Origin: Scytalidium lignicola
Lineage: Eukaryota; Ascomycota; Leotiomycetes
NCBI GenBank assembly: GCA_002812745.2
Contig: NCSJ02000018.1
Coordinates: 124,001 to 188,000, forward strand
Direction: 5' to 3'
DNA length: 64,000 bases
Shown here: positions 4,097 through 63,400 of the stretch, piece after piece
Position numbering within the stretch: the stretch's first letter is position 1
Layout of the letters: every line of letters starts with the position of its first letter
Position numbers and translations under genes: made by a program
The notes under the pieces: generated by a model
The model's input: only the letters and a program-made list of their open reading frames with translations
Told to the model about the DNA's origin: nothing
The model's database searches: none

Positions 4097-5407
4097 TTAA
4101 CCGAAGTGTGGTAACCTTGCCGGCACAAACCCATTGCTAGGATTGGTATTAGAACTGTCATCTATCCGAGATGTCGAACTTGTTTGGTCTTTGTCAGATT
4201 TGTCTACTTTCTCCGGTCCACCGACTGGTAGTGATTCTGGAATACGGACTGCTGGGGATTCATCTCCAGTTTTTGGTGTTGAATCTGGGGGATATTTGAC
4301 AACATGGAGGCCACGGTCAATTGCTAGTTTTGCCGCAGCTTCTCTTTTCCGCTCAACTTCAATTTCTTCCTCTACTCTGAGCCTCTCCTCTTCTTGTTGT
4401 AAGTCTGTCATTGATGGTGTATCCGCTATCCCTAGAGTGGAGAGGCTAGATGCGCCACCCAATTGACCTGATGATACCCTGGAGCTACTTCGTTGGTTTT
4501 CAAGAGGAGTCTTCCCTGAATTCAGATAGTCGCTTGTCTGTGGTACTGTTCCTGACACAGCTCTGGATCCGGGTTGCCTCTTCCCTTTGCTGCTCTTGGT
4601 CTTCCCGCTGCTGCGATCGTCTGTATTTATCCTTCTTTCTAATGCCATTGCAAATTCATCATCTATGGGCACAGCATCGTCTTCACCATCGCTGGGAAAC
4701 AAATCTCCCCTAGATCTAAATGAATCCGTGGTTTCGCCAGAACTCGTGGTCGAACTCCGTTTCCTCCCAGGTCCCATTTGGTCTCCTTCATCATCGCTGT
4801 GATTGTCCATCAATGGCTCGCCTTCTGCGGTATTTGAGCGCAAGGCTCCCGGGTGCTCCTGTAAATCTGCTGCGCTTGGTCGGTACCTTAGAGTTCCTCC
4901 AAGCTTAAATGGTAACCGGCCTAGAAACCCTAGCGCGCTGGTGCTGGGGATGACTGTAGGATCTGGATCTAGACTTTTCCGCCGTCCGCGGGTACCATAA
5001 CTCATGCCTCTTTTCCTCCTGGGAGCCTGATCATTTGTTCCATGTCCAGATCGCGATCCACTTCCCGCTAGCAGGCGATCGAGTTCATCATTTCCCCAAC
5101 CACCGAGGAGTCCAGGACCGCTAAGTCCATCATCGGCATCCCAATCATCGTAGAAATCAAAGCTCGATTCTGCGCGGCCTCTCGCTCGCGTTCGTTCTCT
5201 CAATCGCCTTCCATGCGAATCTCTATCTGGGAAACACGTTGCGGTGCATTGCTCGAAGCCTGATACAACTGATGACAAGCAGGGCGTAATATAAGTATGT
5301 TGGAAGGTCCATATTCCGGCAGCGGCAGACTCGGTCGCAGTTTCGGCGTTATGTGATATCTGATTCCAGGTCTGTCGAATTCGAGGATCCTCGAGTAGCG
5401 GTGCCAT
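4097..5407 (-). CDS. Conserved-looking fungal protein of unknown function, 436 aa
   Basis: I do not recognise a family. The ORF is open further upstream to 5593, but the ATG at 5407 (MAPLLEDPRIRQTWNQISHN) looks like the natural start because the preceding residues are Cys/His-rich with no domain character. The protein has a short ordered N-terminus (~1-60), an aromatic/acidic stretch (SFDFYDDWDADDGLSGPGLL), then a mainly disordered, Ser/Arg/Asp-rich body with SRSGHG, RRKRGMSYGTRGRRKS and FLGRLPFKLGG patches. Near the C-terminus is a highly charged helical segment (QQEEERLRVEEEIEVERKREAAAKLAIDRG) likely to form a coiled coil. Many SR and SP/TP dipeptides suggest phosphorylation. No signal peptide, membrane span or catalytic motif is seen. 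It is convergent with the nitronate monooxygenase. Confidence 0.75.
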   Translation of the reverse strand: MAPLLEDPRIRQTWNQISHNAETATESAAAGIWTFQHTYITPCLSSVVSGFEQCTATCFPDRDSHGRRLRERTRARGRAESSFDFYDDWDADDGLSGPGLLGGWGNDELDRLLAGSGSRSGHGTNDQAPRRKRGMSYGTRGRRKSLDPDPTVIPSTSALGFLGRLPFKLGGTLRYRPSAADLQEHPGALRSNTAEGEPLMDNHSDDEGDQMGPGRKRSSTTSSGETTDSFRSRGDLFPSDGEDDAVPIDDEFAMALERRINTDDRSSGKTKSSKGKRQPGSRAVSGTVPQTSDYLNSGKTPLENQRSSSRVSSGQLGGASSLSTLGIADTPSMTDLQQEEERLRVEEEIEVERKREAAAKLAIDRGLHVVKYPPDSTPKTGDESPAVRIPESLPVGGPEKVDKSDKDQTSSTSRIDDSSNTNPSNGFVPARLPHFG

Positions 5408-51933: not shown

Positions 51934-52935
51934 TTATGGGGATCCGTGGTTTTCAATCCACTTAACCAAACTACGCGCCCATTTCTCACCTTCCTCGTCT
52001 CCACTCATCAAGGCCAGTGGCGGCGAAATATGATTCTGGCCAGCCATGATCTGGAAATCAATTCCTTCTCCCCAAACCTGGGTCCAAAGTTCCACAAACT
52101 CCTCACAAGATTTACCAATGGCGTCGATAGGGTCCCACTCTCCCAGCAATACCAGCAATCTCGGCAAGCCTACTTGGGCTCGTGATCTCTTCGATTTGCC
52201 AATTGCACTGAGCAAGCCATAAGGAGAATGATCCTCGATCCCCTGCTTTGAGCCGTAGTATTTGGGGAGCATATCCATTCGTGAAAGGTTGGCATTGCGG
52301 AAGTGAAGCGCCGGTGCCAGGGCTACGGCACCTCTTAATACTAACCCTTCACGTCCATCCACATACTTTATCCTCTGCTCCTTCCAGCGCTCCTCTAGCA
52401 AGAATGTTGCTACGTGCAAGCCCCCAGCCGAATTCCCCATGATGAAAACATCCCGCTTGCCTTTGCCATCAGCGGGACCAGCAGTGGATATCCAGCGTTC
52501 TACCCAGCTGAGTACAAGGCTCACATCCTCGCCCCCGCTAGGATATACGGCATCCTCTCCACCAAAAGAAGAGTTCACTCGCCGATAGTCTGGGATGATG
52601 GTTGTGATGCCATGAGTTGCAAACCAGGCGCCTAGGTTAGCATAGACGAGACCTTCGGGCACCATAGGCTGGATCTTATCTCCTCTCACCAAGCCTCCTC
52701 CGTAGAGGAAGATTAAGATTGGGCCTGGTGCTGGACCAGGCAATGTGAAGTTTGGAGGTTTGTAGATATCGAGCTTTTGCCGTGGATGCGGGCCGTATGG
52801 CTCGGTCTTACGATCGATAGATTTGATCTCTGCCTTGTGCGCTAGGAGCAGCGGCGCGAAGATCTTGTATGTCGCTGGGATGACAGTGGGGATCGAATCG
52901 TCACCTAAGGCGTGTAGATCCCTGACTTCGTCCAT
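51934..52935 (-). CDS. Alpha/beta hydrolase (esterase/lipase type)
   Basis: A single-exon ORF of 333 residues from an ATG at 52935. It has the alpha/beta hydrolase layout: a strand ILIFLYGGG where the family usually shows HGGG (oxyanion hole; here Tyr replaces His, residues 78-81), the nucleophile elbow GNSAGG with Ser169, an acid in LLGEWDPID, and a His in AGQNHISPPL. These complete a Ser-Asp-His triad. The pattern is near the hormone-sensitive-lipase/kynurenine-formamidase-like group (fungal proteins annotated as esterase/lipase). There is no signal peptide, so it should be cytosolic. Substrate unknown. Its upstream side faces the bipartite repeat array, ~600 bp away, which might bear on its control. 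Confidence 0.9.
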   Translation of the reverse strand: MDEVRDLHALGDDSIPTVIPATYKIFAPLLLAHKAEIKSIDRKTEPYGPHPRQKLDIYKPPNFTLPGPAPGPILIFLYGGGLVRGDKIQPMVPEGLVYANLGAWFATHGITTIIPDYRRVNSSFGGEDAVYPSGGEDVSLVLSWVERWISTAGPADGKGKRDVFIMGNSAGGLHVATFLLEERWKEQRIKYVDGREGLVLRGAVALAPALHFRNANLSRMDMLPKYYGSKQGIEDHSPYGLLSAIGKSKRSRAQVGLPRLLVLLGEWDPIDAIGKSCEEFVELWTQVWGEGIDFQIMAGQNHISPPLALMSGDEEGEKWARSLVKWIENHGSP

Positions 52936-55092
52936 GACTGTATTGGTAAGTTTGAGGCAGGAAGGGGGAGGGAAAAGGAGATGAATGCTGAGAACTCTCA
53001 GTTAATCAATATGGTACAGATGTGGTGAATCACGAAAGAGAATTAGAGCTATTAATACACCCAATTCACAAGTAGAGAACGTGGAACCCGTAGATTGATA
53101 TCAAGACTAATAACGTAGGGTGGATCAGGGAAATAGCTAACCTGAAATCAAGCTGGATCTGATTCTAAGGTCCAGCTGATGAGGGATTCCGAGTCCTCTC
53201 GCCTCGTAGATTGGGAGTAGTAAAGATATGTGCTAAACAAAGAGCTTCAAAACATTCTACGCTTCTACGCTCATGTCATGTGTATCTTCGGCTCCACCTG
53301 GGTGCGGTGTTCCGCGCTGGTCAACTGGTCTGCCGCGCTACGACCCGACCCCTCCTTGGCCACCATTCCGAAGGTGGGGCACAAAGGGGACCCCGCCATG
53401 GGTCTAGGCTCGGCTATTGTTATGTTTCCGATAGCTTAGGCACGGTCTTGTTCCATCTCTAACATCAAAACATGCCAATGCTTGAAAATCCTCTATTAAG
53501 CTCTAGCATGAAGACAAAGATAGAGAGATATGAGATGTGCATAATTTGTCGTTGCATGTCTTATAGTGTGAAACCGTCACTATATCTCTCGGCACAGAGG
53601 CACAATGGAAGGTGGCTGTAGTCTACAGGTTTGGGATGCACGAAATGCAGCTAACACTATCTCGGCATGATGGGTTGTAATTTGCTGCTATGTGGAAACA
53701 ACTCTCAAGAGCCTGGCATAGATGGTAAAGACTTAAGTAGGTTGGACACTTCCGTTGCAAGTCTTCTGTCATAAACTAGCGCTAAAGAACTCGGCATTAT
53801 TGTACGATTGGAGCACAACTTAATACATAGTTGTTCTTTGTTATAGATCTACTTTTATATGCTAGTTAAAGAGCTTAATGAAGATATCAAGGGAACACCA
53901 TAGCCTATAAATTTCATCTTCGTTGCAGATCTAATGTTCCTAAATGCAGCGCTATAAAGCTCGCCGAGAAAGCGTGGAGCATGATTGTCAGGTCTTCGTT
54001 GCGAATCTTCTCCATGAAACCAGCGCTATAAGTCTCGGCATGAATAATCAAACAGACAGTACAAACGAAAAGGAGACAACGACCCTGAACAACTTTTTCG
54101 TAGCTAATCAGAATCAAAATCCTTCACTAAAAGACTCGGCACACAACAAAGACGTATTGCAGTGCAGTACTTTGATATGACTCTTAATTTCCAGATCTTC
54201 ACTAAATGGCTTTGCATACAGGTTATGGAAGATGGACTGTAAAAGAATTTCGTTGCACATCAATGTTTGAAATTCTATCACTATAACACTTGGCATGAGA
54301 TTGAAAGAAAAACACCATTGCCAATATTTCGTTCCTCATCAGTGTTTGAAATCTAACGCTATATATCTCGGCATCAGCTAAGAAAGAGACCTACCAAAGA
54401 TATCCTTACGTTGCAAGTCTCAATCTAGAAAACTATCACTATAAAACTCGGCGTTAATATGTGAATGATATAGATTATACTTATCTATATCGTTGTGTAT
54501 CTAAGCTCACACACCTAGCGCTAAATTCTCGGCATAAGGAAATAGAGATGAGCCATGGACATTCAACTCTTCCGTTGCACATCAACGTTAGAAACCATCA
54601 CTAAAGAGCTCGGCATGAATGAAAATGGATGAGTGTGCAAGAAAATCTATCAAACTTTCTAACTAGCTCTAAAAGCACTCGGCATAAAGGAATAAGAAGG
54701 AAATGGTTCAAAATACAGCAATCCATGTTTGCAAATTCGGGTTAAACGTCTTAGCACTATAAAACTCGGCATGTAGATTAATATGAAAGCCCCGTGCTGA
54801 TTATGTTGCGGATCTGTCTGTTTTAGTTAGCGTAATACACGGCATGAAGCTAAATAAAAGACATTGGCCAAAGATATATCACGCACGTTGCAGATCAGAG
54901 GGCAAAAAGTCAGCGCTAAAATACTCGGCATAGGAATACAAAAGGACATCAGTAGGTTTCATTGTGAGCTGTAAGCAGTCGCAGTGTTTTCAAAAATATA
55001 ATATTAACACCATGGCATAGCAGGACATGACATAGATGGGAATATTAGGCACAACGTTATGGGGATTTAGATCCCCCAAGAGAGAAACCAGA
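52936..55092. other. Hydrolase upstream region and repeat array; no coding gene
   Basis: 2.2 kb with no supported coding frame on either strand. About 52936-53480 is the upstream region of the hydrolase. The remaining ~1.5 kb is the bipartite repeat array described separately, up to the stop codon of URB2. Confidence 0.7.
53490..55025 (+). repeat. Array of ~17-20 degenerate two-box units, non-coding, family unknown
   Basis: Each unit has a left box near CGTTGCARATCT and a right box near GCGCTATAAA followed by nCTCGGCATGA (TCACTATAAA is a common variant). Clear right boxes start (at CTCGGCA or equivalent) at 53588, 53661, 53712, 53790, 53960, 54034, 54135, 54210, 54289, 54367, 54447, 54528, 54609, 54678, 54765, 54838 and 54924; weak ones at 53501, 53873 and ~55010. 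Clear left boxes start at 53550, 53673, 53753, 53921, 53997, 54099, 54251, 54330, 54409, 54491, 54573, 54804 and 54886. Left-to-right distance is 36-39 bp in nearly all (34 for the 54804 unit). Spacing between units averages ~83 bp but ranges 51-101. Text between boxes is unrelated from unit to unit. No ORF spans units. All units are in the same orientation. I know no matching repeat or RNA family. Confidence 0.85.
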
Positions 55093-58000
55093 TCAACCGC
55101 CCTTCCACTTTCCAAACTTCTGGTAATCCCTTACCAAAGTCCCGAACAATGCTCTTCCGCTTGAATCCAATCCATCACCAATCATCCTTCTCATCTCCAC
55201 GGTTGTGGTATCAAAAATGGCATATAACCCTGGAACCATCTTCTCTCTCACCTCAGGTTTCATCTTCATCTCCAGCTGAAATTTGATATATGTGGTCAGC
55301 ACGGATTGCATATACTGACCTGCTATACGCTTCGCCTTGTCTGTTGCAGAGGTGAGTGAATTATGCTGTGAGCGCGTCACAGTTGAGACGGAAGGGTCGC
55401 ATATTAAAGTTAAGAGACGTGTGTAGGCCGTACTATGGGCTATTGCAAGCTGATGTTGGGGCCGAGTGGAGAGCCACGGTGGCGGTGGGAACCGTTTAGT
55501 AAAGGCTTTATTAGTATGTGTGAGAGGTGTAAAGAAGCAACGGAGGAGTGACTGCATTGTTTGAACTACAAGGTGAAAGTGACCTTGAGTTTTTAGGCGG
55601 TGGTTTGTAAGCACCACTTGTAAGAGGCGGCAGAGATGAAGATAGATCGTTCCGGCGCGGCTCTGGTTCAGGGATGGGCCATTGCGGGAGCACGTTATAG
55701 CCACACTACCGAAGGTGCTATCGATGTTCCATTGAGACAATGCTCGACCCTATAATAACATTAACAACTATGATAGAATAGCATCTTATAATATCTACCT
55801 TAGTACGAAGCATCATCTCCATGATCTCAGTTATTAAGCAGAATTGCCGGATACTAGTTGTCTTCCACATGTGGGAACACAGCTGAGAATATGTCACAGA
55901 TAAATCATATTCTACGTCTTCAGAGGCGTCATTAGAACGTCGGGTATCTAGGACTGAATCAGTAAACCATATAATTATGAGATTTATGGGGTTGCTACCT
56001 TGACAAGACACAATGATATGCCTTGCTGCGAGAAGGTTCTCTAGAGAATCTGGTCCATCGAAAGCCTCTTCCATAAGGCTTCTGAGTACTTGCAGTTTCC
56101 CGTCCTCATCCAAGCCCTCCAGCAACCCCGAAGTGCTAGCACATACAGTCCTCCTTCCTGATGCTGCTGTTGCAAGCCCCTGAAAAGGTGTTTCCAGATG
56201 CGTGTGGGCTGCCATAAAAGTGGCCAGCTCCTTTCCCAGATCCAGATGTAGATCATGCATCGATGTAATGCATGCCTGTGCATCTTCAACACGCTTAGCC
56301 AGCTTCTTTTCATCGAAACCAACTGCTTCTAGAGCACTCATCGTGGAGAGAAGGGATAGTGACCTTGCACTATCATCGCTGTTGTATTTGCTTGGCTTGT
56401 GTAGTAGTGTCTTGAACTTTGACAGAAGGGCGGAACTGTAGGCAGACATAAAATCCTCATGGTCTGATGTGTCAACTACATCAAGCCTATTTAGCGTGGA
56501 ACCATGAGAAATAAGCGTAGTAGCTACAGCTTGTGACAATGTGTCCAAAGTATAACTATTGTTTTCTATACATTTCTTGTCTGCATCAATCCTCTCTTTG
56601 AGGAATTGGATAGCTTCCAGCAAATAGGTGCGGTTCCAAGGCTGGTCAATATTGGTGACAACGAAACTAGGCCCCTATTAATATCCGTTGAAAGAAAGGA
56701 ACTAACATTAACTCACGATAGTGTTAATTTCACAAGCTCTCGGAACAAGCTCAAAATGATTCGTGGCTTTGGAATCTCGGAGACCAGATACTGGGCCAAT
56801 TGAATGAGATCTTTAAACTTCATATCCTAGGACTAGTCAATTTTCCATAATAACAATCCACAAAAACAACCTAAGACTTACCTTATAAACCATTGGACGC
56901 TGCATAACTTTCAATTTTAAGCTGAGAATAGAAGCATATACACCACCGTGGATATCGCCCAGTGATGACCCAGCAGCTTTGGGCATCCAACTACCTAAGA
57001 CGTGCTCTCTCTGTTTTTTTGAGAAGGCTTCAAGGGGAAGCCGAAGCAAGCAATTAATAGCGAACTCATTCCAGATTTGTACATTGTTTCCAGCCCCTTC
57101 TTTGGCGACACCTGAGAGCAGGATATCGATTATATGACCTGCGTGAAATGTTATTCAAAATGATCACTTTATGATGCTCTAAAACAGGGGTCAATTCATA
57201 CTTATGGTTGCTGGGCTGTTTAAAAGGAAGTTATCTGCTAGTCCAGACAACAACAGCTCTGAGAAAGCATCTTGGGGAGAACGAAGAGAGGAGTCAAAGC
57301 TATTAGAAGCCTTCTCCGAGGTCGCAAGGTCAAACATAGATTTTATTATCCCTGTAAAAGAATCATCGGGTGAATCTGAGCATAACCTGTATATGACGTT
57401 AGTGAAAATTTCCACTAGACATACTAAGTAAGCCATACTCAAGGACTTTCGGGTGCTCAGAAAATATGCATCTAACAAGTGACCAGTGAACCCATAGCTT
57501 CCCTGGGGAATAGGTAGACAATTTGGCACTGATATTAACCTCAGTCGGTGCTGGGTCATCGTGTATATGCACCACTAAATCACCAAAACTCTTTCTCGTT
57601 TCATCCACTAATTTCTGCATTAAGGGTCTCAGTGTTTCCTCCATCTGACCTCCTTTTTTTGCAATGTCCCAGCAGGCACATACGCATCTGAAAATTTCAA
57701 CAGATTTGAGATCATCGATAACTGGAATAGTAGCTGATAGTTCATCGAATGGTCTAACATTTCTCTTCCAAAGATCCTCCAACTCTGGAATTAAGGTGTC
57801 GGAAACCCACCCCAAAGTTTTAGATAGTACCCTCCAGGATCTCCATATATATGCAGAGCTCAGCTTCTGACTATGTCCGTCATCGAACATTATATGATAA
57901 AGACGGAGCCCGACATAATCGACAACCTCTTCCTCGCGAATAGAACTAGCAATAGCGTCAAGGATCAAGAACACGGCATTTCCATTTTCCGAGACTTGTG

Positions 58001-59791
58001 AGGCAAGCCAATCTAGAAGCTCACCAATTTGTTGAGTCGTCAATGAAGCTTCAAAGAGTTCACTCAACTCAGCCTGAAGATCTTCGTCTTCCCATACACT
58101 GAATCTGGTTGGGTGAAGCTTCAACTCTTTACGAAGCCTTTCTAATTCCACAGTCTGGGAATACCAGTGACGGATGAAACCGGATAGATCTCTAGCTTTA
58201 GAGAACCCTCGCATTAAAGGTATTAAAACCTCCAAAACCACCTGTTTAGATATCTCTTCCGTCTTTTCTTCGTTCAGGGAAGCTTGAGTAATCCGTGCTA
58301 AAATATTTTGCAACACATGGTCTTCGTCATTTGGTATGAGGAAGGTATTTATGTCGATCTGCATTACTATTGCGAGTACTTTCCAATCCACATATCCATC
58401 GAGCAAGGCATACTCTAATGTAATAGATTTCAATATGGATAAATCCAAATTTAACTTAAAATGCATTGCATTTTCCAACATCCCATAGATGGCTTTGTTG
58501 CGGCCATCTAAATCCATTGATGATATGGCATTTCTGAATGTTGTAAATGTGGTTTGAAGCCACTTCTCGTCTTGGAGCCGCCATTTTCGAGGTCCTTGGA
58601 GTTTTAATGAACGTATAGCAATATTAAACATGATAGGGGCATAATCAGAATTCAATAATATTGCCCCCTCACCTAAAACAGTTTCGAAATCGGAACCGTT
58701 AGATTCTCCACCAGCTGCTTTTGCTGGGAGAATAATATGGCGTGCAACAAACTGCTCCAACTCTGTGATCCATTCAAGTCTCACGGAGCTAGATAGTATA
58801 GAATGATTTTCTTCCTTAAGAATCCGAAGTAGAGATAGAAGTGGCTTTGTGCAAGATTGGGAGAAAAGGTACATGTCCCCATTGCCTATTGCATGAGATT
58901 CCCATATAGTAATGAAGGGAGACAGCCAATTCTTGGCATTGGTTGGAACTGAGGAAACCTCTGTATACAGTACCTTTTCGCAGATGCTAAGCCATGAGCC
59001 TAAAACCTTTGCTGATTCATCGCCTGAAGTTCGAATGACAGATCTCATACATTCTACTGAAAACGAAGCGTCTATTTTATCTTCGTTATTGGCAAATATC
59101 GGATTCGAGGAAGAGATAATATCGTTTACAAAGCAAAATATCGACTCCACTACGGCTGCTAGCCCATTGTTTCCAGTGTCGATAGTTGTCTTGACTAGCT
59201 CTCCTGACCTCTTTCGCTTTTTAGACACCTTTGTTGGCTGTTCTTGAACCGTTGAACTAGATTCAGACACATAGGTATCCGGAACTTCTGGTCTCCCTTG
59301 CTGTATTTGCACATCGTAAACAGTTTGTTGTAATATGGACGTGAACCTTCTCTCGTTCAATATTCGGGAGGCATTCAATAATGGTATAGACTTAAGAGTT
59401 CGTCGAAGGAGCTGCCATGAGAGGTGAGAGGTCCTATAATGACGGTTAAAACTAGAACTAGTTTAACATATAAGAAACTTGCCTTGGAATGCTGTCCTTA
59501 GGTGATTGGAGTTTCTTAAGCAACCAACGCAGCAACCACTCCTCTCTGGCATGAAACACTGAGACCTTTGATTTGTTTGCTGATTCTAGAATATCATTTC
59601 CTTCCTTCTCAATCGTATATAAATCGACACCAATAAATTTCGCGGCTTCTACAAGTTGCTGTTCATAAGGTGCGGATGCATTTTCAAGTTCCGCAAGTTT
59701 CTCTTGCGCAGCACGAGAATGAGAAGACTACATATTGACCAAATAAGTTAGCCAGCTATACTCCAACGGAGTATCCTTGATAACTTACCAT
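55093..59791 (-). CDS. URB2: Urb2/Npa2, nucleolar 60S pre-ribosome assembly factor
   Basis: Eight coding exons fit: 59791-59789, 59727-59483, 59433-57439, 57386-57202, 57138-56882, 56826-56717, 56666-55799 and 55749-55093, 1439 residues, all phases consistent. The protein is a helical solenoid without enzyme motifs. Its C-terminus (TDKAKRIAGQYMQSVLTTYI, KMKPEVREKMVPGLYAIFDT, GLDSSGRALFGTLVRDYQKF-GKWKGG) is the diagnostic Urb2/Npa2 C-terminal domain, and a nuclear-signal-like KVSKKRKRSGE lies in the N-terminal third. Urb2 acts in early 60S maturation (27S pre-rRNA). Two oddities: the first coding exon is the ATG alone, and the second intron uses a GC donor (GCAAGT). Divergent from Mic10 with 305 bp between starts. 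Confidence 0.87.
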
Positions 59792-60494: not shown

Positions 60495-63400
60495 TGGGGA
60501 GATTGAGAGCAGTTAGGAGGGGGATGTGCAGAGATGTTTATTATTGTTGCTTATAGACTTGAAAGCACGAATGTATATTGTACAAAATGCATATTCCTAT
60601 TAGAGATCAATATAGAGTTTGGCCATAGTTGGTTCACGTGCCGGATGGAGCCGTAATAGACCACTTGGCGTATGTACTGAGTGATATTTATACACTTGTT
60701 AACTTTGTTTGTTATATGGTCCTGAATAGTATGTCGTTTTATAAGAGCGATAAATATCTATCAATTATGGAATCAAAGTTGGCAAGATGTCAAGGAAATG
60801 TTTTCATTATTCTTAACTTCAAATGCAAAAGGTGGTCTGGAAGAAGAAGTCACGGGGAGGATTGAAGGAGGGCCCGACTTTTGTTGCACGTCTTAGTTTT
60901 TAGCTTCTACTCTAGACAGATGTAGGCTGGCGTCTAATTATCTATCTCTGACAAAAGTAGAGCTTATTCGCATGATGCGTGGCTCTAGGTTTGTGCTTTA
61001 GGCATTTTAGCTGCATATGATAATATCGTAGCCATGAGACATCCTAGACACAGCCAAAGGGCCATACAACCCTAATACAGCAGATAACTAGGATTTATTA
61101 TATATGAATATGAAGCCCACTACTAACATTTCAAATCTTGGCAATACTATGGGTTTTAGAATCCAATCCTGAGCCGTTTAGGGCGGCATCCATTTAGATA
61201 CCCTCCCTGAATTATGACTGAAATGGAATAATCCTGCTGACAGCCTCCCTAGAATGCCTGCTGGATATAAGCACCAGCCACCAACACCTCCAGCGGCTAG
61301 AAATCCGTATCACTCATACTCCACCACTATTGGTGTTCCCCTATCATCGTTGAGGCCAAAGTAGATTTGATATGAACTGGCTATCAAGCGATAGTATATT
61401 GTCTGAAACGGAGAGACTATTTCTATTCTCAGCAATATTTATGCCACCTTTACACAATATTGTAATGTAACGTCATCATCCCATAGTAATCATAAAGCTT
61501 TCCCCAACTTCTATGAGGGTGTCAGATGATACCAAGACCATCGAGCCGCTTGCAGTGATCCAGACAGGGGGAATTGCAGCGCATTTCGGTCTTCGAATCT
61601 GGACAATAACAACCGCAGAACAATTGGTTGTGATACAAAAAGACATAAGGACATAAGGCATGAATGCCTATATCTAACTATAGCTAGAAGAATGAAAACA
61701 AAATAAGGCTTGGTATTCCTCGATTTTTCTCGTCGTGCAATATACAGCTTGCCTTCCGACATAAAGAAAACATTATGATAACTTACTAGTACTTGCTTTT
61801 GACACATGTCAAATATAATAATGCATATAAATGTACAACTCTGAATTGCGGCATACCAAAGATGGTCAAACTACTTGCGCTCTGGTCTATGCGATTATTT
61901 CGTCATTAAGAAGCACCTACTCTAACAAAGACCGTGAGGGCCGCGGGAGGCATAAATACTCCGTCGGTAAACCTCAGAGTTCCATCCTAGGTATATCCAT
62001 ACAGAGCGGTCTATGCTTAGGAAAGAGGGCAATGCTAATACTCTCCTGTCGCGTGGCATCCTGTCCACACGCACAGACAAGAGAGAGGGAAAAGCACACT
62101 CTTAATGCAATCCTCCAGAAGGGTACCAGTAGTGAGCAGAGACTATACACTAACTACACCGTACCGTCCGTTCGCCCAACACGAGCTCAGCCGTCTCGAC
62201 AGGCCAGCCACATGGTATATTGTCTGATCGTCTAGGGCTAGCTGCGACGATGTGACGGATATCCCGAAACTGAGGTCTCTGATTTGTGAAGAATATTCTC
62301 TAACTGGGTTTCCAAAAGGCATGAGTGAAGAAATAAGCACTGCCCTGATATCAGAAACGATCCCCTTTCTTGTCTCGGGAGCGCTATCTCCACCATTCGC
62401 GTCAGTGCTAGAAAAAGGAGAATAGCTAGAGATTGAAAGAAAATTTTCCACGTGGCAATCCCGCAATTAATGATCCGACCAGCCAAAGGGCAATCTCGAG
62501 CAAATCTCAAACCAGATACAACATCTCTGCTAGTCTATGAATGGAAATATAGGAAATCGAGCCGGTTTATGCCTAGACTTTGCTTGGAGTTCTGACTATC
62601 AAACAAGCGAAATGATGCAGACCCATTGACAAGCGTGACAAGGAAGCAGAGTTGCAGCAGCAGTGGATACAGCAATGTCTTGCTGTAGCAATCATGAACA
62701 TGCTTCTAGAAGCTATTCCAAGGGTTTCCTTGTGCTCTCACGTCAGGTGCAGCTGGTAATGTTACCACATCCTGTTCAGGAGTCGAAGTTCAAATCGTCG
62801 TCATGCCGTGGTAAGGGAGCTGATTGGACACGGGATTTATCTAGATGAAAGTACGGTATGGATTTCGCAACTCTTAGGACAAGGTCCCGTAAGGGGCTCG
62901 AGCCACGGACATTGGGTCCATCAGTCCTGGGTCTCCACGAGACTCGCTGTTGAAGCTTCAAGGTTAAATATGCAGGAACGAATTATCCAGGACGGTACTG
63001 TACTGCACTGCACTGCATTGTACAGTAAGTTCAATGCAGGTGAGGCTCACGGGCAATCCACGGGAACTGTGTATACTTTCCTGACTGTGGAACTGCCGTA
63101 GGTCCAGCTGTTTCAGATGCATTTTGCGGCAATCCGTTAGATCTTTACGACTTGGGCCATCAAAGACATGATTCCAGCCTTTTTTTTTTACCAGAGAGTA
63201 CTAGCCTAGATTGCCACCGCTGCACCGCCCAAGTACGACGGGCCACAGCAGTGAAATTGTGCCTTTTTCTCTCCGTTGCCCCTCGCTCATTGGACCAGAG
63301 CACCATCGCGAGAGGTTGTGGCGTGTGGCTTGCATAGCAGCTAATTTGCCCATACGTTTTCGGTGGCCTTCTCTCGCGACGGGTGGAGGGTTTTGATGCT

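What the first reader, a model, noticed from the sequence alone, without database searches (positions are those of the whole stretch)
53490..55025. Uncharacterised array of ~17-20 paired-box units in intergenic DNA
The sequence directly shows ~17 clear copies of CTCGGCAT-like boxes, each preceded by ACTATAAA/GCTAAA-like text, and most with a CGTTGCA-like box upstream. Copies are degenerate yet keep the same boxes and orientation over 1.5 kb. It is not an ordinary satellite, since DNA between the boxes does not align, nor a CRISPR-like array, since units vary. A possible reading is a multi-site protein-binding platform (regulatory, replication or chromatin) or a transcribed array of small RNA units. 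I know no described family.
Basis: partly seen in the sequence, partly recalled or inferred. Interest (0 to 1): 0.88.

Follow-up and report, generated by a model that had tools for sequence, protein, structure and literature searches.

The report
Dispersed arrays of a two-part DNA motif
A stretch of non-coding DNA in a fungus holds a dozen or more copies of a rigid two-part motif, and the same motif recurs in arrays at more than twenty other places in that genome, which suggests a protein-binding platform of a kind we could not match to anything described.

Summary
In window 53.4-55.1 kb, 7 box pairs lie at the stated spacing, against 0.005 expected (maximum 1 in 1000 shuffles). The array is not unique: of 53 stretches of this genome examined, 27 hold the unit at E < 0.01 (153 units; 19 stretches with three or more). 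A full-unit pattern with 19 fixed bases has 62 hits in the 46.85-Mb genome against 0 for its control; a near-identical pattern has 0 in the viral and 0 in the prokaryote collection.

The unit spans about 52 bp: TTTYGTTGCNNNTCT, 14-17 bp, then CRCTATAANNCTCGGCAT. Units repeat about every 80 bp. Spacers diverge faster than boxes. I found no RNA structure and no sequence shared by most flanks.

Another array (L017, opposite strand) keeps box 1 and the offset but carries a different second box, GACCAACCAT: box 1 looks constant, the second box exchangeable. Best reading: a multi-site DNA-binding platform with a common and a type-specific factor. No binding or RNA data, and no related species, were available.

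The parts
53542..53599 (+). unit of the array (box 1 + box 2)
   Evidence: alignment row; profile hit
53744..53801 (+). unit of the array
53914..53971 (+). unit of the array (box 2 altered: CTCGCCGA)
53988..54045 (+). unit of the array
54089..54146 (+). unit of the array
54243..54300 (+). unit of the array
54321..54378 (+). unit of the array
54401..54458 (+). unit of the array
54486..54540 (+). unit of the array (end approximate)
   Evidence: profile hit starting 54486, score 22.1
54563..54620 (+). unit of the array
54719..54776 (+). unit of the array (box 1 poorly kept)
   Evidence: profile hit starting 54730, score 21.8
54878..54935 (+). unit of the array
54164..54221 (+). decayed unit
   Evidence: profile hit starting 54180, score 10.3
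53661..53668 (+). box 2 without a clear box 1 (decayed unit)
   Evidence: weak profile hit 4.6 at 53659
54678..54685 (+). box 2 of a decayed unit
   Evidence: weak profile hit 5.7
54838..54845 (+). box 2 of a decayed unit
   Evidence: weak profile hit 8.3 at 54801
51934..52935 (-). flanking alpha/beta hydrolase ORF (5' end faces the array)
   Evidence: ORF; weak Pfam BD-FAE and Abhydrolase_3
55093..55740 (-). 3' end of the flanking Urb2 gene (3' end faces the array)
   Evidence: Pfam Urb2 9e-63; upstream exon 57399-59378

Best explanation
The region is one member of a family of intergenic arrays spread through this fungal genome. Each unit of about 52 bp is a composite protein-binding site: box 1 (TTTYGTTGCNNNTCT) would be read by a common factor, and a second box starting about 26 bp after GTTGC (CRCTATAANNCTCGGCAT here, GACCAACCAT in another array) by a type-specific partner. 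Tandem copies about every 80 bp would bind the complex many times over and so set local chromatin or transcription. Arrays grow and spread by copying of segments; afterwards spacers drift and boxes are kept. Shown: units, geometry, dispersal, the exchangeable second box, faster spacer divergence, no RNA structure. Inferred: that proteins bind, that the second box has its own reader, and the output.
For: Pairing and clustering far above chance. Full-unit pattern 62 hits, control 0. 153 units in 27 of 53 stretches, one strand only in 23 of the 26 stretches with more than one unit. Spacing from box 1 to box 2 within 1 bp in 108 of 129 units. Spacer sites differ more than box sites in related segments, 171 of 664 against 42 of 301, p = 4e-5. 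No pairing or folding signal. Second box replaced at the same offset in L017 (10 units, offset 26-27 in 9; shuffles mean 0.3, maximum 2). Only 4 of 40 neighbouring ORFs scanned and named share a family with another (MFS transporters and the like aside, the neighbours are unrelated).
Against: No binding data. The strict single orientation within arrays is not needed for a plain binding platform and may only reflect tandem copying. One of six related pairs shows no box advantage, and the six pairs reuse some segments. Selection is not separable from conservation by a copying machinery that recognises the boxes. The second-box exchange rests mainly on one locus: the pattern for it has 3 hits in the genome, two of them in L017's contig.
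Confidence: 0.5

Rival explanations
1. Selfish dispersed repeat: the boxes are kept because a copying or transposition machinery recognises them (like subterminal binding sites of a transposase, or amplification through circles), with no host function.
For: Arrays on different contigs share segments longer than a unit, e.g. L015 and L023, 290 bp at 77%. Inverted pairs of the longer box-1 form exist (L015, L409). L012, L015 and L251 hold units on both strands.
Against: No sequence shared by most flanks, no common ends or target duplications noticed, unit number varies, arrays lie beside ordinary single genes, and spacers of most units do not align although boxes do. I made no systematic search for target duplications and searched no transposase family.
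Confidence: 0.22
2. Array of mini-promoters: box 1 and the TATA-like CTATAA at fixed distance drive a short RNA from each unique spacer, in the manner of nematode 21U-RNA loci or snRNA promoters.
For: Rigid spacing of box 1 to CTATAA; unique spacers; box 1 lies within the upstream flank of a TATA-bearing ncRNA-like family in 5 of 25 copies by a strict pattern.
Against: In L017 the box at the same offset is GACCAACCAT, which is not TATA-like. Box 1 was not found upstream of the three U6-like loci. Spacers vary from a few to more than 60 bp (unit spacing 58-116).
Confidence: 0.1
3. Replication-origin or segregation element: the unit is a long initiator- or kinetochore-type binding site repeated for strength.
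For: K. lactis origins carry a 50-bp consensus 'suggestive of a dimeric structure' and are intergenic, and S. cerevisiae origins favour convergent gene pairs (PMC2869322, passages). Here, of 9 arrays with both neighbours assignable, 4 lie between convergent, 5 between tandem and 0 between divergent genes (hand tally).
Against: A few dozen loci in 46.85 Mb are too few to be all origins, and two arrays lie 48 kb apart on contig C26, which does not fit one centromere per chromosome.
Confidence: 0.06

Closest known systems
50-bp origin motif of Kluyveromyces lactis (PMC2869322, passages read)
   Same: Long (about 50 bp) bipartite-looking DNA motif, intergenic, many places in a fungal genome
   Different: Not described in those passages as tandem arrays; about 150 origins in a much smaller genome; sequences were not compared here
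21U-RNA (Ruby motif) loci of C. elegans (search listing and abstract starts)
   Same: A conserved upstream motif repeated next to unique short DNA, clustered
   Different: More than 10,000 loci that make about 28-nt transcripts; here about 150 units found and no evidence of transcripts
Subterminal repeat arrays of DNA transposons such as En/Spm (recalled, no call)
   Same: Many copies of a short protein-binding motif in a compact stretch
   Different: Those lie at the ends of an element with terminal repeats and a transposase gene; none was noticed here
C. elegans meiotic pairing-centre repeats (recalled; one search gave a listing only)
   Same: Dispersed arrays that load a DNA-binding protein many times
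   Different: Short single motif in far larger numbers; no link to meiosis is known here

Membership tests
CRISPR-like array | near-identical repeats with spacers of near-constant length | tested here: not met
   units degenerate, unit spacing 58-116 bp
Ordinary tandem satellite | whole period aligns between copies | tested here: not met
   TRF none in the array; spacers near base composition; some neighbouring units in L010, L013 do align
Structured RNA family of Rfam | match to a covariance model | tested here: not met
   0 matches at gathering score in the window
Structured RNA (any) | compensatory changes or folding excess | tested here: not met
   two of six tested end-stem columns pair slightly above shuffles (p 0.03 and 0.04), the other four do not
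DNA transposon with subterminal repeats | terminal inverted repeats and target duplications | tested here: inconclusive
   no ends shared by most flanks; no systematic search for duplications; inverted box-1 pairs in two stretches
DNA transposon with subterminal repeats | transposase gene in or beside arrays | tested here: inconclusive
   no transposase family among the 21 of 40 neighbouring ORFs with a Pfam match; 19 had none
21U-type promoter array | short transcript from each spacer | not testable with these tools
   no RNA data
Replication origin with long ACS | autonomous replication | not testable with these tools
   no functional data
Multi-site protein-binding array | specific binding of a protein to the unit | not testable with these tools
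   no binding data

The most novel reading that the evidence does not exclude
A modular DNA code in a filamentous fungus: one constant 15-bp box plus, at a fixed offset of about 26 bp, one of several exchangeable second boxes, repeated about every 80 bp (close to one turn of DNA around a nucleosome) in dispersed intergenic arrays. One scaffold protein would load different partners at dozens of loci to set chromatin or expression states: an undescribed class of cis-element.
Probability: 0.3. Interest if true: 0.88.

Novelty: categorically new. Interest (0 to 1): 0.72.

Why it matters
Long, rigid, dispersed composite motifs that are neither evident transposons nor RNA genes are, to my knowledge, rarely described in filamentous fungi. 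The family offers a ready bait (a 52-bp duplex) and 27 mapped stretches, so the binding factor, its partners and the effect of deleting an array can be tested directly. If the exchangeable second box at constant geometry is real, it would be a natural combinatorial array code.

Tried and rejected
Small structured RNA unit: not supported. A TTTCGT/ATGAAA end stem: two of six column pairs slightly above shuffles, four not. Protein-coding repeat: spacings are not multiples of 3. General snRNA promoter element: box 1 was not found upstream of the three U6-like loci; one box-1-like match lies on the other side of the third copy. Other snRNA genes were not looked at. Viral or prokaryotic origin: full-unit pattern 0 hits in both collections (both answers warn that records very near the window's genome may be left out). 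In the viral loci a matrix scan found one pair of weak matches, in two records, on opposite strands. Helical phasing: best period 11.0, p = 0.13 after scanning periods. Alternation of the TCA and GCG forms: 39 like and 24 unlike neighbours, 41.3 like expected. tRNA genes: none in the window or in 16 stretches. A shared function of neighbours: 21 of 40 scanned ORFs have a Pfam match, with no common theme (three are MFS transporters). First pattern with up to 2 mismatches: 168 hits against 87 for its control, so many of those are chance.

Rows dropped before a count: the self-overlapping pair L010 4736/4819 was left out of the spacer-against-box test (with it). Ncrna-like copies L270 and L271, whose ends I had extended by hand, were left out of the strand count. 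For the model I gave 74 of the 129 units.

Full report
WHAT IS THERE. The window is G000:C99:124001-188000 of a 46.85-Mb assembly in 664 contigs. No tool named the organism; Urb2, fungal cellulose-binding and other gene families fit a filamentous fungus (inference). Between an alpha/beta hydrolase ORF (51934-52935, -) and the end of Urb2 (55093, -) lies an array on the + strand. Of 18 box-2 positions listed by hand, a whole-unit profile accepts 12 units at E < 0.01 and scores others weakly. Pairs of both boxes 34-42 bp apart: 7 observed, 0.005 expected, maximum 1 in 1000 dinucleotide shuffles; 0 on the opposite strand.

A GENOME-WIDE FAMILY. A 16-place pattern from box 2 with up to 2 mismatches gave 168 hits against 87 for its control, with visible clusters. 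I fetched 20 stretches around such hits. A matrix built only from 15 window units then showed, in most of the 20, several further units mainly 60-100 bp apart on one strand; L020, L021 and L028 showed only one strong match each. With 12 more stretches, 20 stretches taken around another element and the window, 53 stretches were searched with a profile of 129 units: 27 hold 153 units at E < 0.01, 19 with three or more, 7 with two, 1 with one (L253). Six of the 12 stretches (L254-L259) and all 20 have none. The 129 training units are among the 153 and the stretches were chosen by hits, so this is a census of what I read, not a genome count. Whole-genome pattern counts, both strands, with control in brackets: CACTATANNNCTCGGC 38 (2), CGCTATANNNCTCGGC 38 (0), CRCTAAANNNCTCGGC 19 (1), full unit GTTGCNNNTCTN{14,17}CNCTANANNNCTCGGC 62 (0). 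The full unit with CNCTATA has 0 hits in viral contigs and 0 in genome contigs.

ANATOMY. Consensus TTTYGTTGCNNNTCT, 14-17 bp, CRCTATAANNCTCGGCAT. The offset between the aligned start of box 1 and a fixed point of box 2 is 28 or 29 bp in 108 of 129 units. An alignment of 74 units carries 0.788 bits per position over 58 positions. The one strong coupling is between two box-2 positions two bases apart: T with A in 63 and G with G in 48 of 129 rows; it is not a pairing pattern (observed and expected complementarity both 0.52). Same-strand neighbours between 50 and 125 bp apart: 87 spacings, median 81, range 58-116. Of the 26 stretches with two or more units, 23 have them all on one strand; L012, L015 and L251 are mixed.

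NOT A STRUCTURED RNA. RNAalifold finds 0 pairs. Folding energies equal those of shuffles on both strands (mean z 0.03 and 0.00, 128 units).

CONSTRAINT. In six related segment pairs, spacer sites differ at 171 of 664 and box sites at 42 of 301 (Fisher p = 4e-5). One pair shows no box advantage, and the pairs reuse some segments, so they are not independent. Across the family the core positions of box 2 are 71-98% conserved except the variable ones, while spacers are near base composition. Arrays at different loci share segments longer than a unit (L015 with L023, 290 bp at 77%), so copying between loci has occurred.

CONSTANT BOX, EXCHANGEABLE SECOND BOX. On the opposite strand of L017, around four units of the window's type, 10 units carry box 1 followed at 26-27 bp (9 of 10) by GACCAACCAT with up to 3 mismatches; 300 base shuffles give mean 0.3, maximum 2. 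In the window's type the corresponding offset, from GTTGC to CRCTA, is 25-28 bp (the gap of 14-17). Distances between the 10 are 73-161 bp, with one of 413. The exact pattern for this type has 3 hits in the genome, control 0: two on C78 (L017) and one on C593. A third type, TTTTGTTGCATATCT followed by text with TATATAC and GAAAAGCTTCAA, lies in L011 (5 copies, 207-242 bp apart) and L406 (2 copies). A longer box 1 alone, AAARTTTTGTTGCANNTCTG with up to 2 mismatches, has 72 sites, control 9.

CONTEXT. Of 40 neighbouring ORFs scanned, 21 have a Pfam match and they share no theme. Counting sides with a Pfam match or an ORF of 200 aa or more, 18 of 26 face the array with their 3' end (binomial p = 0.08); of nine arrays with both sides assignable, four lie between convergent, five between tandem and none between divergent genes. 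These tallies were made by hand and are only suggestive.

MECHANISM. I commit to a multi-site DNA-binding platform: a common box-1 factor and a second-box factor bound at fixed offset, multiplied by tandem copying, acting on local chromatin or transcription. The period is close to one turn of nucleosomal DNA (established knowledge; the link is speculation). Shown: units, geometry, dispersal, modularity at one clear locus, faster spacer divergence. Inferred: binding proteins and output. The strongest rival is a selfish repeat whose boxes serve its own copying; weaker ones are mini-promoters and origins.

KNOWN SYSTEMS. The nearest in form is the 50-bp origin motif of K. lactis (PMC2869322, passages); nematode 21U loci (listing and abstract starts) resemble it in having a motif beside unique DNA. 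No sequence comparison with either was made. Paper searches for the box sequences (25 of 1,969 papers listed) and for fungal arrays (0 papers; 12 of 295 listed) showed nothing relevant in what was listed; this is a weak test of absence. Searches gave listings only.

LIMITS.

Noticed in passing
L010:5608-5848, L019:3177-3389 and 4659-4910, L021:3452-3686, L253:161-364, L260-L279: A dispersed family of about 220 nt (42 BLAST matches in the genome; 25 copies read) with helices that keep pairing through changes. In the orientation opposite to these labels it reads upstream motif, TATA box, structured part, T-run, like a Pol III gene. Wobble evidence for that strand is clear in two helices (15 against 2) but opposite in a third, doubtful one (5 against 10). 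No Rfam match at E up to 1 in 8 stretches. In 4 of the 27 unit-bearing stretches a copy lies near units, and a strict box 1 lies within 220 bp of 5 of 25 copies.
   Followed up: partly
L017:3645-4996, - strand: Second array type: box 1 followed at 26-27 bp by GACCAACCAT, interleaved with four units of the window's type on the other strand.
   Followed up: partly
L011:8203-9150, L406: Third array type: box 1 followed by text with TATATAC and GAAAAGCTTCAA, 207-260 bp apart.
   Followed up: partly
L403 (C593:5900-7700); window 60880: Seven box-1 sites on one strand, 95-324 bp apart, each with different following DNA, one followed by a tRNA-like AGGCCGAGTGGTTAAGGCGC (ARAGORN finds no tRNA); a lone box-1 site in the window at 60880.
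   Followed up: partly
L281, L282: Two diverged U6-like copies (47.0 bits, over the cut-off, and 36.3 bits, under it) besides the main U6 gene in L280 (69.2 bits), with a similar stretch beside both.
   Followed up: no
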